From NCBI RefSeq assembly GCF_024623785.1, contig NZ_JANKBZ010000008.1, positions 248,001 through 312,000 of the forward strand: DNA of 64,000 bases, in the 5' to 3' direction. Of the stretch, positions 40,846 to 45,849 are shown one piece after another. Source of the DNA: Archangium lipolyticum. GTDB lineage: Bacteria > Myxococcota > Myxococcia > Myxococcales > Myxococcaceae. How positions within the stretch are numbered: position 1 is the first letter of the stretch; each line of letters opens with the position of its first letter. The position numbers and the translations under genes were made by a program. Below the pieces are notes generated by a model that was given only the letters and a program-made list of their open reading frames with translations, was not told the DNA's origin and searched no databases.

Positions 40846-41024
40846 CCCGCGCGTGTCCTCCCGCCCGCTGACCGGGCGGGCCTGGACCCGCATCACGTTT
40901 TTCGTCCGTCACATCTTCGCCGCCCATCACAAAAATCAGCTCGGGAACTCCAATCCTGACGAGTGGCAAGGAACGCATCCCGCGCCGGCCACTCATCAAT
41001 CCCACACAATTGGAGCATTCCAAG

Positions 41025-42575
41025 ATGAGTATGATGAGGTGGAACGAGGACGAGGCTCGGCGGCTGGTCCTCGGGCAGCTGGTGTCGCTGGTGGACGGTG
41101 TGCGGACGCTCGCCATCCGCACCCAACAGGGCAAATTCCGCAAGCACGAGCCCATCACCGTCTTCCGCCCCCAGACGCTCCAGGAGCTGATGGGCCAGGT
41201 GGAGGAGGAGCTGAAGAAGCTCGCCACCGAGCACGGCGAGCTCCGGGACTTCGCCGACGCGATGCGCGCCCTGTTGCACCGGCTCCCCGACACCAGCCCC
41301 CGCGAGATGTACGACGCGGTGATGGACGCCTCGGAGCAGTGGCTCGGCGACGTGGCGGACGAGGACACCGATGGCCTGCGCTCCGACTCGCAGCACCCCA
41401 CGCAGCTCGAGGAGGTGTCGCTCCTCATCGACGACCTGCGCCGCGAGCGCCGCAAGCCCACCCGGCGCGAGAAGCTGGCCATCCACATGGCGCACGAGGA
41501 GCTCGCCAATGGCTCCCGGTTGCAGCTGCCCTACAAGCCCCTGCCCATCCCCGGCTTCGGCGACACGCAGACGTACATGTCCGTGACCGACCCGGGCGAG
41601 GGCCACATCGCGGGCACCACCACGCGCGAGGAGTGGATGCGCGGCGTGCTCGTGCACGTGGAGCACCTGGAGCGCGGACACCAGGACCGCGAGTCGGTGG
41701 AGTCCTACCGGATTCCCCGCATCCTCAACGTGGCCAAGGTGCGGCTGCACGTGGCCGGCCGCGCGCCCGTCACCAGCTTCATCGGGCGGCCCATGTTCGA
41801 CAGCGGCAAGTTCCACCTGGACCTGTGGAAGACGGTGCAGACCATGGCCGGCACCTGCACCGCCATGTTCCAGCTGGGCGTGGCCGAGTGCAAGGTGGCC
41901 ATGGAGCGCATGACGGCCTCGCAGATCATCGAGTTCATGCGCGGCCTGCGCGGCAACATCCTGCGTGACGCGCGCACCCAGCTGCTGTCCGCGGCCTTCA
42001 ACCTCAACTCGCCCATCCTGGATGACCGCGACGGTGGCACGCGGCTCGTCACCGGCCGGCGGGAGATCGGCCTGCTGGGCATCGAGCTCGTCAAGGCAGG
42101 GGGCTTCGACAAGGTCACCTGGGACGGCTCGACGGACACGTACCCCAGCGTCCCGGTGATGGAGCAGCTCACCCATGCCGAGGCGCTGGAGCTGGTGCAC
42201 CGGGCACACGAGCGCGGGCTGCGCACCTACTTCTCCGCCGGCTTCCGCTTCCCCCACATCCCGCTGGCCGTCTACACCGGCGTGGACGGGGTGGGCATCG
42301 GCGGCGCGCAGATCCTCCGGTACATGGACTCGAGGACCGGCTACCACGGCCCCTTCCAACCGGAGAACATCTCGCGCATCCTCGCCATCCGCGACGAGGC
42401 CGCCCGCAGCCCCCTGGGCCGCGCCGCCGCCCAGCTCGCCCGGCTCGACTGGCTGTCCTCCCAGCGCCGCCTGGATGACCGCCAGGAGCAGTTCCGCATC
42501 GAGCTCTACGAGGCCCTGTCCCGCCAGCAGGTGGACGGCCTCCTGGAAGACACCGACGCCCGGTCCGCCGCCTGA
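41025..42575 (+). CDS. Uncharacterised protein with possible C-terminal barrel domain
   Basis: A 516-residue soluble protein that I do not recognise. The ATG at 41025 follows TTGGAGCATTCCAAG with a good ribosome site. The N-terminal 170 residues are helical and charged (EEARRL-like start, then TLQELMGQVEEELKKL and RRERRKPTRREKLAIHMAHE). The centre (about 180-330) has GFGDTQTYMSV, RILNVAKVRLHVAGR and IGRPMFDSGKFHLDLWKTVQ. The last 180 residues alternate strands and helices (GIELVKAGGFDKVTWDGS, ALELVHRAHERGLRTYFSAG, YTGVDGVGIGGAQILRY), which resembles a TIM-barrel phosphate-binding half. No signal or membrane segment. The 179 bp upstream show no clear promoter. Confidence 0.8.
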   Translation: MSMMRWNEDEARRLVLGQLVSLVDGVRTLAIRTQQGKFRKHEPITVFRPQTLQELMGQVEEELKKLATEHGELRDFADAMRALLHRLPDTSPREMYDAVMDASEQWLGDVADEDTDGLRSDSQHPTQLEEVSLLIDDLRRERRKPTRREKLAIHMAHEELANGSRLQLPYKPLPIPGFGDTQTYMSVTDPGEGHIAGTTTREEWMRGVLVHVEHLERGHQDRESVESYRIPRILNVAKVRLHVAGRAPVTSFIGRPMFDSGKFHLDLWKTVQTMAGTCTAMFQLGVAECKVAMERMTASQIIEFMRGLRGNILRDARTQLLSAAFNLNSPILDDRDGGTRLVTGRREIGLLGIELVKAGGFDKVTWDGSTDTYPSVPVMEQLTHAEALELVHRAHERGLRTYFSAGFRFPHIPLAVYTGVDGVGIGGAQILRYMDSRTGYHGPFQPENISRILAIRDEAARSPLGRAAAQLARLDWLSSQRRLDDRQEQFRIELYEALSRQQVDGLLEDTDARSAA

Positions 42576-42605
42576 GACGCCCCACTCCCCCTTGAAGAAC
42601 CGCAG

Positions 42606-42680
42606 TGCCCGCCGGGCGCGAGCCCGAGCAACTGGTCCGATGATCGGACCAGTTCGCGCGAAGCGCGCCCGGCGGGCGCA
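42606..42680. repeat. Nested inverted-repeat element
   Basis: Outer 14-bp perfect arms GCCCGCCGGGCGCG (42607-42620) and CGCGCCCGGCGGGC (42664-42677) enclose a 25-bp palindrome with 12-bp arms, AACTGGTCCGAT-G-ATCGGACCAGTT (42630-42654). Short TTGAA/TTCAA arms flank it further out (about 42592 and 42688). There is no T-run, so it is not a standard terminator. It separates the unknown gene from zwf. It could be a mobile REP-like element or an operator. Confidence 0.75.
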
Positions 42681-42734
42681 TCCCCCTTTCAAGAGCACCC
42701 GAGGAGGGCGCTCATCTCCCTGGAGAGACACCCG

Positions 42735-44260: not shown

Positions 44261-45736
44261 TCAGCGCTTTCGAGGGCGTGCGAGAGCCAGGCGATGCACG
44301 GCCTCGCGCAGCTCCTGGGGAGCCAGCGAGGCGAAGCCCAACCGGAAGGCGGAGGGGCCCCGCCCCTCGAGCGCGAAGGAGCGGCCCGGAGTGACGTGCA
44401 CGCCGTGGGAGGCCGCGCGCGCCGCCCAGTCCGCCGTGTCGAGCGTCTCGTCCACCCGAGCCCAGAGCGCGAGTCCCCCAGCGGGAATCTCGAAGTCCAC
44501 GGAGCCGCCGAGCTCGCCGCGCAGCGCCTCCACGAGCGCGTCCCGGCGGACGAGGTACTCCCGGCGGGCCTTGCGCGCGTGACGCTGAAGCTCGCCCTCC
44601 TGTAGCAACTCCGACAGGGCCCGCTCCAACGGCGCATCGCCCTGGCGATCCACCACCGTTCGCAGGGCCGCCAGGGCGCTCACCAGCGGCGCCGGGGCCA
44701 CCACGTAGCCGAGCCTCAATCCCGGAGCGACCAGCTTGGAGAGCGAGCCCACGTAGACGATGCATCCGGCGCGGTCCGAGCTCGCCAGGGGCAGCACGGG
44801 CCTGCCCTCGTAGTGGAACTCGTGGTCGTAGTCGTCTTCCACCACCGCCACGCGGGCCTCGGCGGCCAGGCGCAACAGCTCCATCCTCCGGGCTGCGGTG
44901 AGGGTGACGGTGGTGGGGTACTGGTGGTGCGGCGTCACATAGACGGCACGCACCGGCCGCTTCGCCATCAACGCCTGGAGCGCGTCCACCTTCACCCCCT
45001 GGGCATCCACCGGCAGGCCCACGAGCCGGGCTCCCGCCAGGCGCAGCGCGTCCCAGGCCGGCCGGTACCCAAGCCCCTCGACGGCCACCACATCCCCCGG
45101 GCGGATGAGCGCACGCGCCACGAGGAAGAGGGCCATCTGGCTGCCCCGCGTGACGAGCACGTCGTCCGCTCCGGCGGCGAGCCCCCGCGTGCGGCTGAGC
45201 ATCCCGGCGAGGGCCTCGCGCAGACCGGGCTCTCCGCGCGCATCTCCCACGCCCAGCGTCGTCCGGGCCCGGCTGGTCAGCACCCGCCGGAAGGCACGCG
45301 CCAGCGCCACCGAGGGAGCCAGCCGCACGTCGGGAGCACCATCGTTGAACTCCAGCGTCCCCCTGGGTGGCGGAGCCCCCCGCTCGGGAGCCACCTCCTC
45401 TTGAGGAAAGGAAAAGCCCGGCCGCGAGGGCATCCGCTGACGGGGCGTGCCACCAAACCCCTTCGGTGCCGCCACCGGGAGCGCCGTGGAGACGAAGGTG
45501 CCGCGAGACGGCTCGGCGGAGGCCCACCCCTGGTGGATGAGCTCGCGATAGGCCGCGTCCACCGTGTTGCGGTGCACCCCGAGCGACTGGGACAGCGCCC
45601 GCGTCCCAGGGAGCGCATCGCCCGGGGACAACCTCCCCCGCTCGATGTCACGGACGACGGCGCGCGCCACCTGGACGAAGAGCGGCACGGACGAGGATGG
45701 ATCGACCTCCAGGGTCAGCTTCCAGGTACGCAGCAC
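44261..45736 (-). CDS. MocR/PdxR-type regulator (GntR HTH plus aminotransferase domain)
   Basis: A 491-residue regulator. The N-terminal winged helix is GntR-type (RDIERGRLSPGDALPGTRAL, SLGVHRNTVDAAYRELIHQG), and residues about 115-480 are a fold-type I aminotransferase domain with the PLP lysine in VGSLSKLVAPGLRLGYV and VVEDDYDHEFHY. MocR proteins use PLP or its adduct with an amino acid as effector. The start is taken as the GTG at 45736; a TTG-led extension to 45757 is possible. It diverges from the cupin-DapA pair across about 110 bp and probably controls it. Confidence 0.92.
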   Translation of the reverse strand: MLRTWKLTLEVDPSSSVPLFVQVARAVVRDIERGRLSPGDALPGTRALSQSLGVHRNTVDAAYRELIHQGWASAEPSRGTFVSTALPVAAPKGFGGTPRQRMPSRPGFSFPQEEVAPERGAPPPRGTLEFNDGAPDVRLAPSVALARAFRRVLTSRARTTLGVGDARGEPGLREALAGMLSRTRGLAAGADDVLVTRGSQMALFLVARALIRPGDVVAVEGLGYRPAWDALRLAGARLVGLPVDAQGVKVDALQALMAKRPVRAVYVTPHHQYPTTVTLTAARRMELLRLAAEARVAVVEDDYDHEFHYEGRPVLPLASSDRAGCIVYVGSLSKLVAPGLRLGYVVAPAPLVSALAALRTVVDRQGDAPLERALSELLQEGELQRHARKARREYLVRRDALVEALRGELGGSVDFEIPAGGLALWARVDETLDTADWAARAASHGVHVTPGRSFALEGRGPSAFRLGFASLAPQELREAVHRLALARPRKR

Positions 45737-45849
45737 CGGCCCAGTGTACTTCGCCAAACCGGCTCTTTCGAGGGTGCCGGCCGCTCTCTACCTTTCGCCT
45801 CGCTCGACGCGCGGAAGGAACCGCGCCAGCCACACGAGGAGGCCATTCC

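What the first reader, a model, noticed from the sequence alone, without database searches (positions are those of the whole stretch)
42590..42695. Nested inverted repeat before zwf
Outer 14-bp and inner 12-bp perfect arms make a cruciform-capable element of about 75 bp with weaker outer TTGAA/TTCAA arms. It is not a terminator. I saw no second copy in this window. It may be a REP-like mobile element, or a two-part operator for zwf.
Basis: seen in the sequence. Interest (0 to 1): 0.55.

Follow-up and report, generated by a model that had tools for sequence, protein, structure and literature searches.

The report
Dispersed palindrome with species-specific tips
The nested inverted repeat before zwf is an old copy of a small scattered mobile-type DNA element of Archangium, whose hairpin tip is alike within each species but differs between species at the same sites, so it looks recopied between loci rather than being a switch for zwf.

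Summary
The inverted repeat is real (fold z = -8.1) but is not a zwf operator. It belongs to a dispersed family in Archangium, with related cores in a second genus.

Unit: CCGGNCGCG, 9 variable nt, 25-bp palindromic core, 9 variable nt, CGCGNCCGG (window 42612-42672). Young copies carry it inside a roughly 159-bp element with terminal inverted repeats of about 29 bp. One such copy is a clean gain in species G003, absent in two relatives. Copies lie mostly just downstream of stop codons.

The surprise is the hairpin tip. At 10 orthologous sites of two species, arms and sides are 90% identical between orthologs against 73% between paralogs. The central 9 nt are 94% identical among paralogs but only 60% between orthologs (label swap 2 of 1024; repeated in a second species pair, 2 of 256). 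Old shared copies have lost their terminal repeats (0 of 44 keep both, against 31 of 137 unshared), yet mostly carry their own species' tips. Asymmetric tips in many loci favour copying in place over selection on a symmetric site. The machinery is unknown; a co-evolving binding protein is the main rival.

The parts
42612..42672 (.). 61-bp inner unit of the family: CCGGNCGCG-N43-CGCGNCCGG
   Evidence: Arm-only pattern: 10-35 sites in each of G000-G003 and G005, control 0-3; fixed spacing in the ungapped profile of 181 copies
42607..42620 (+). left outer arm, 14-bp perfect inverted repeat
   Evidence: I3
42664..42677 (+). right outer arm
   Evidence: I3
42621..42629 (.). left 9-nt side segment, variable between loci, kept with the locus
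42655..42663 (.). right 9-nt side segment
42630..42654 (.). 25-bp palindromic core AACTGGTCCGATGATCGGACCAGTT (type A)
42638..42646 (.). 9-nt hairpin tip that evolves in concert within each genome
42690..42699 (+). CAAGAGCACC, possible remnant of the long end of the full-length element
   Evidence: inference
42591..42596 (+). weak outermost arm CTTGAA (pairs with 42688-42693); no family support found
41010..42575 (+). upstream gene, no Pfam or NCBIfam match; the element follows its stop codon
42735..44255 (+). zwf, glucose-6-phosphate dehydrogenase
   Evidence: TIGR00871 588.7 bits; PF00479/PF02781

Best explanation
The element is an old, end-stripped copy of a small non-autonomous mobile-type element of Archangium. 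It sits in the 3' intergenic space of the gene upstream of zwf. SHOWN: full-length copies are about 159 bp with imperfect terminal inverted repeats of about 29 bp around a 61-bp nested palindrome; one is a clean gain in one species; copies lie almost always between genes, mostly near stop codons; and the 9-nt tip of the inner hairpin is largely homogenised within each genome while arms and sides stay with the locus, also in old copies without terminal repeats. INFERRED: a trans-acting process recognises the palindrome, probably as a single-strand hairpin or cruciform, and recopies the core of at most 25 bp from one locus to another in place, in either orientation. The near-invariant AACTGGTC/GACCAGTT stem would be the homology or recognition site. 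Near zwf the copy most likely acts, if at all, only as a 3'-end or read-through structure of the upstream transcript; this is untested.
For: Dispersed copies. Terminal repeats: motif on 87 of 362 sides against 9 in the control window, 35 copies with both; 38 copies with one short and one long side, mostly about 159 bp. Gain: about 156 nt present in G003 L291 and absent in G000 and G001. Location: 87 tandem, 73 convergent, 17 divergent, 5 edge, 2 inside of 184; in a small background divergent gaps hold 37% and convergent 20% of intergenic length. Concerted tips; label-swap tests 2 of 1024 and 2 of 256. Age: both terminal repeats in 0 of 44 copies at shared sites and 31 of 137 others, p 1.2e-4, while shared copies show tips of the same types as the other copies of their genome. 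Copying rather than symmetric selection: asymmetric spacer CCA in 41 of 43 G001 and 17 of 19 G000 sites; a one-sided A at -3 in 20 of 56 type A sites of G002, never with its partner change; tip orientation against the sides mixed (G001 CCA tips: 30 right, 8 left, 3 none); the two ortholog pairs in which both copies have CCA are reversed (L025/L189, L051/L228). The +-4 pair covaries in G003 (20 both, 25 neither, 16 one-sided; p 2.6e-4).
Against: No enzyme was identified. Y1_Tnp matches are marginal and absent at E <= 0.001 in G005, G045, G048 and G051, which carry many copies. No transposase stood out near elements, and the two lone terminal-repeat matches in fetched loci look like chance (5 substitutions each). 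No clear target-site duplication. Copying over about 25 bp has no mechanism that I can name. Selection by a co-evolving binding protein would also homogenise tips. G003 is not uniform: 8 of 63 sites have CCA and 16 of 63 are one-sided at +-4, and one of its shared sites (L051) has CCA. The reversed pairs L025/L189 and L051/L228 have one weak flank each (68% and 72%) and sides of only 0.61 identity. L008/L326 lies in a paralogous gene family (flanks 84%).
Confidence: 0.6

Rival explanations
1. The 61-bp unit is the binding site of a chromosome-wide DNA-binding protein complex (nucleoid, chromosome-organising or transcription-end factor). The element was domesticated as a site; the protein's specificity changed in each species and selection pulled every site along.
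For: Two symmetric motifs at invariant spacing with free sequence between them. The 61-bp part outlives the terminal repeats. Genomes differ in core type: A without B in G000, G003, G048 and G051; B (ACTTGTCC) with few or no A in G004, G047, G057-G059; both in G001, G002, G005 and G045. Sites cluster around record coordinate 0 (21 of 42, 22 of 56, 26 of 66 within one twelfth either side), which in G003 lies in gidA/mnmG.
Against: Asymmetric tips in dozens of sites and tips in both orientations against the sides do not fit a symmetric dimer. Strong selection would be needed at dozens of 3' intergenic sites. Only the record start of G003 was anchored.
Confidence: 0.25
2. Ordinary mobile repeats (MITE or REPIN) with tips alike only because the copies are recent insertions.
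For: Terminal repeats and a clean gain; tandem arrays in the second genus.
Against: At orthologous sites arms, sides and flanks are conserved while the tip differs; copies there have lost their ends (0 of 44 with both), so they are old in place.
Confidence: 0.05
3. RNA element: a bidirectional transcription end or mRNA-stabilising stem-loop for the genes beside it, including the gene upstream of zwf. It may hold together with the best explanation.
For: Core centre a median of 68 bp after the stop in tandem pairs, closer to the stop in 70 of 87; 73 convergent sites. A stable fold.
Against: No T-run. Tip orientation shows no consistent bias to the transcribed strand (same/opposite: G000 1/6, G001 12/8, G002 16/8, G003 16/20). 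Explains neither tip conservation nor concerted change.
Confidence: 0.2
4. Two-part operator that controls zwf.
For: Retained before zwf in four species.
Against: Dispersed family beside unrelated genes; core begins 56 bp after the preceding stop; four different tips in the four species at this site.
Confidence: 0.04
5. DNA uptake sequence with species dialects.
For: Species dialects and inverted pairs near gene ends are known for DUS (passages of PMC3630211).
Against: Half-sites hardly occur alone: G001 has 87 half-sites in all for 42 sites. Tens of copies, not thousands.
Confidence: 0.02

Closest known systems
MITE, miniature inverted-repeat transposable element (recalled as a class)
   Same: Short, non-coding, fixed ends with terminal inverted repeats, dispersed, clean gain at one site
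   Different: No target duplication or parent transposon found; the inner palindrome outlives the ends and its tip is homogenised in place
REPIN (two inverted REPs forming a hairpin; PMC3116915, listing and passages seen)
   Same: Dispersed, extragenic, nested inverted repeats of fixed length with variable parts between conserved ones; tandem clusters
   Different: Conserved centre; tips replaced in place at orthologous sites; no RAYT found with the family
GTAG/CGTC-tagged REP superfamilies (PMC3733652, listing and passages seen)
   Same: Mostly between convergent and unidirectional genes, downstream of coding regions
   Different: No GTAG or CGTC tag at a conserved position; the terms Myxococc, Stigmatella and Deltaproteobacteria have 0 occurrences in that paper's main text
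DNA uptake sequence dialects of Neisseriaceae (PMC3630211, listing and passages seen)
   Same: Species-specific dialects; inverted pairs associated with gene ends
   Different: Short single sites in thousands of copies, in genes too; here tens of palindromes, half-sites rarely alone
REP evolution by gene conversion (Higgins et al. 1988, known only from its title in a reference list)
   Same: Asks whether gene conversion links dispersed palindromes
   Different: Here comparison of orthologous loci limits the homogenised stretch to the core

Membership tests
MITE | Short non-coding element with terminal inverted repeats at fixed ends | tested here: met
   38 copies with one short and one long side, mostly about 159 bp, conservation drops at the ends; 31 of 181 by a stricter test. 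The zwf copy itself lacks them
MITE | Insertion polymorphism | tested here: met
   L291 in G003, absent in G000 and G001; one site
MITE | Target-site duplication | tested here: inconclusive
   No clear direct repeat at the ends
MITE | Parent transposon with the same ends | tested here: inconclusive
REP / REPIN | Dispersed extragenic palindrome | tested here: met
REP / REPIN | High copy number, usually >100 per genome (abstract of PMC2817692 in a listing) | tested here: inconclusive
   17-66 type A sites in the five Archangium genomes that have them, plus type B; lower bounds, no combined total made
REP / REPIN | GTAG or CGTC tag at one end | tested here: not met
   Consensus of 181 copies; CGTC only in one class of side segment
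REP / REPIN | Associated RAYT (Y1 HUH transposase) beside the repeats | tested here: not met
   PF01797 in 5 of 30 genomes, 22.6-26.6 bits around a 23-bit cut-off, none in G005, G045, G048, G051; no core in nine Y1 loci. By sequence profile only
Intrinsic terminator | GC-rich stem followed by a T-run | tested here: not met
zwf operator | Sites at promoters of a regulon | tested here: not met
   3' bias, varied neighbours
zwf operator | Effect on zwf expression | not testable with these tools
   needs a deletion strain
DNA uptake sequence | Very many single sites | tested here: not met

The most novel reading that the evidence does not exclude
A dedicated process in Archangium and perhaps a related genus recopies a palindromic tip of at most 25 bp between dispersed hairpins, in either orientation and without moving the flanking arms. 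Dead, end-stripped copies of a small mobile element thus keep the current tip 'dialect' of their species at old inherited sites: in-place copying of a kind that I have not found described.
Probability: 0.35. Interest if true: 0.85.

Novelty: new variant of a known kind. Interest (0 to 1): 0.6.

Why it matters
Small palindromic repeats are common, but how their copies stay alike is an old question. Here orthologous sites separate copying in place from new insertion: inherited copies that have lost their ends carry the tip types of their own species, not those of their ortholog. That makes gene conversion or tip replacement between very short palindromes directly testable in a free-living soil bacterium, and it gives a family with species dialects for finding the partner protein by co-distribution.

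Tried and rejected
zwf operator: rejected as the main role. Known RNA family: none above a gathering score. RAYT partner: distribution does not match. Neighbouring autonomous gene: all-against-all comparison of 663 predicted proteins from loci with elements; of the 25 largest clusters printed, protein kinases (29 loci) and DUF2381 (15 loci, some loci fetched twice) were widest, the rest at most 7 loci; six representatives checked in Pfam were a kinase, DUF2381, a GntR-type and a LysR regulator, a sigma-54 activator and a hydrolase; the other clusters were not checked. Structure in the 9-nt sides: excess complementarity between columns reflects subtypes; left and right are anti-complementary at offset 14 (0.14 against 0.42 expected). 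DNA uptake sequence: rejected. Viruses and plasmids: the core pattern 0 in viral contigs, no match of 42595-42690 in plasmids. Prior description: searches listed no paper that I recognised as describing this family; only open-licence papers are held, and most were seen as listings.

Limits. Gene calls come from my own codon model, not an annotation. G000 undercounts: partial copies lie within about 150 nt of the ends of contigs C55, C37, C40, C8 and C53. The gap background is small: 70 gaps, 33 of 90 bp or more. Empty-site alignments: of 13 G003 sites, 6 did not reach the element in any relative (L281, L302, L305, L293, L149, L315). Ortholog pairs: 28; the label-swap test used 10 of the 11 G000-G003 pairs (L027/L326 dropped, since L326 was already paired) and 8 of 8 G001-G002 pairs; the other 9 cross-clade pairs were not tested. 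One search names 34 loci of the second genus, giving 51 distinct copies; terminal repeats were not tested there.

Full report
WHAT IS THERE. The window lies in a 12.6-Mb genome, G000:C8:248001-312000, of the genus Archangium.

A DISPERSED FAMILY. A search of the own genome with the 161-bp region gave 38 match rows at 23 places. An 86-bp query matched 9 of 39 genomes: the own, five of the same genus (one hit only in G004), and three others weakly. The core pattern with up to 1 mismatch was found in 14 of 96 family genomes: G000 17, G001 42, G002 56, G003 66, G005 30, G004 0; seven of 16 genomes of genus g33 (73, 79, 30, 15, 8, 2, 1); 2 each in G067 and G016; reversed-pattern control 0. g33 is probably Corallococcus, by recall of the genome length of G047. 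A pattern of the arms alone with 43 unspecified nt found 10, 15, 26, 35 and 17 sites in G000, G001, G002, G003 and G005, 0 in G004 and 0-2 elsewhere, against 0-3 for the control. The Archangium matches listed there (lists of G002 and G003 were capped) hold palindromic cores, some imperfect, of type A (AACTGGTCC...) or type B (AACTTGTCC or AAGTTGTCC...). Type B with up to 1 mismatch is in 14 of 96 genomes. It is absent in G000 and G003 and frequent in G002, G004, G005, G047, G057, G058 and G059.

ANATOMY. In 181 type A copies (19, 41, 56 and 63 from G000-G003, 2 from G005; one G001 copy with a short flank left out) the ungapped profile shows CCGGNCGCG, the core, and CGCGNCCGG, separated by 9 variable nt on each side. 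Outside this unit, the motif CCTGAAAGRAC lies on 87 of 362 sides (9 in the control window), at 10-15 nt or 30-39 nt in most cases. In 38 copies one short and one long side together give an element of mostly about 159 bp, ending in CTGGCTTRG on both sides, where conservation stops (a few of the 38, such as L143, look like chance). At G003 site L291 about 156 nt carrying the core and these ends are present, while G000 and G001 have none of it; with G000 closest to G003, a gain in G003 is the simplest reading. No clear target duplication is seen. In 51 copies of the second genus the core is the same and CCGG is enriched at the same distance (22 of 102 sides at offset 27; 11 at offset 21) with weaker arms; copies there often stand in tandem about 59-106 bp apart.

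LOCATION. Of 184 parsed sites (182 in G000-G003, 2 in G005): 87 between tandem genes, 73 convergent, 17 divergent, 5 at an edge, 2 inside a predicted gene. The core centre is a median of 68 bp from the upstream stop in tandem pairs, and 70 of 87 are nearer that stop than the next start. In a background of 70 gaps, divergent gaps hold 37% and convergent 20% of the length in gaps of 90 bp or more. At zwf the core begins 56 bp after the stop of a gene without Pfam or NCBIfam match. In three genomes sites cluster around record coordinate 0 (Rayleigh p about 0.0006, 0.02 and 0.05); G003's record begins in gidA/mnmG, which I recall as origin-proximal; the other two records were not anchored. A review notes insertion sequences enriched around the origin of Sorangium (passage of PMC8538405).

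CONCERTED TIPS. The tip spacer is CCA in 41 of 43 G001 and 17 of 19 G000 sites, CAA or CAG in 57 of 57 G002 sites, and mainly CAG (44 of 63) in G003, where 20 of 63 sites carry the paired C-to-T and G-to-A change at +-4, 16 a one-sided change, and 8 have CCA. Among 28 site pairs with both 1-kb flanks homologous, arms and sides follow the locus and the tip follows the species. For 11 G000-G003 pairs mean identities are flanks 91.7%, arms 0.96, sides 0.83, outer core 0.99, core centre 0.61. With 10 of these, core centre: paralogs 0.94, orthologs 0.60, unrelated cross pairs 0.60; sides plus arms: paralogs 0.73, orthologs 0.90, unrelated 0.73; 2 of 1024 label arrangements reach the observed excess, the least possible. 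For 8 G001-G002 pairs the values are 0.94, 0.78, 0.78 and 0.74, 0.81, 0.74, with 2 of 256. Copies at shared sites have lost their ends: both terminal repeats in 0 of 44, against 31 of 137 other copies (p 1.2e-4), and their tips are of the types seen in the other copies of the same genome. The zwf site has four different tips in four species.

MECHANISM. Shown: dispersion, ends, one gain, geometry, location, concerted tips. Inferred: in-place copying. For copying speak asymmetric tips in many loci (CCA; the one-sided A at -3 in 20 of 56 G002 sites), mixed orientation of the tip against the sides, and the two CCA-CCA ortholog pairs, both reversed, though with one weak flank each. The +-4 covariation (p 2.6e-4) shows that dyad symmetry matters. 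A co-evolving binding protein is the main rival. Copies also decay: the G000 copy is missing at orthologs of L334, L321, L307 and L298 and lacks its left part at L325; G001 lacks the centre at L161 and has a type B-like core at L334.

RELATION TO KNOWN THINGS. Full-length copies meet the main MITE features that I could test; target duplication and parent remain open. Position and nested hairpin are REP/REPIN-like (PMC3116915, PMC3733652, PMC8049555: passages seen), but the tag and RAYT association were tested and not met, so I do not file it there. Species dialects recall DNA uptake sequences (PMC3630211, passages), which makes unlikely.

Noticed in passing
L006, L008, L027, L146, L303, L313, L314, L316, L326, L328 and others: Several elements stand beside protein kinase and DUF2381 genes (kinase cluster 29 loci, DUF2381 cluster 15 loci; some loci fetched twice). 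These paralogous pairs include several of the divergent sites.
   Followed up: partly
G000 contigs C55, C37, C40, C8, C53 (L349), within about 150 nt of an end: Contigs of the window's own assembly begin or end close to partial copies of the element, so its copy number there is an undercount.
   Followed up: partly
L195-L202: Marginal Y1_Tnp (HUH) genes with open frames of 313-416 aa in four Archangium genomes, without the element nearby.
   Followed up: partly
L015:286-308 (genome G016, another genus): A related palindrome AACTGGTCAGACCGTCTGACCAGTT within different, G/C-rich complementary arms.
   Followed up: no
L043, L044, L363: A different GC-rich palindrome (CACCCCGTCCCTCTCCC...GGGAGAGGG-like) near zwf-like matches and beside one element site; looks like another repeat family.
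   Followed up: no
G001:C1:7616628-7618089 (L042): A. lansinium has a second zwf gene (72% identical); the best zwf matches of G004 and G005 are also 72%, so absence of the element before an unchanged zwf could not be tested there.
   Followed up: partly
window 44261-45757: Gene convergent with zwf encodes a MocR/PdxR-like regulator (NF052282, 360 bits).
   Followed up: no
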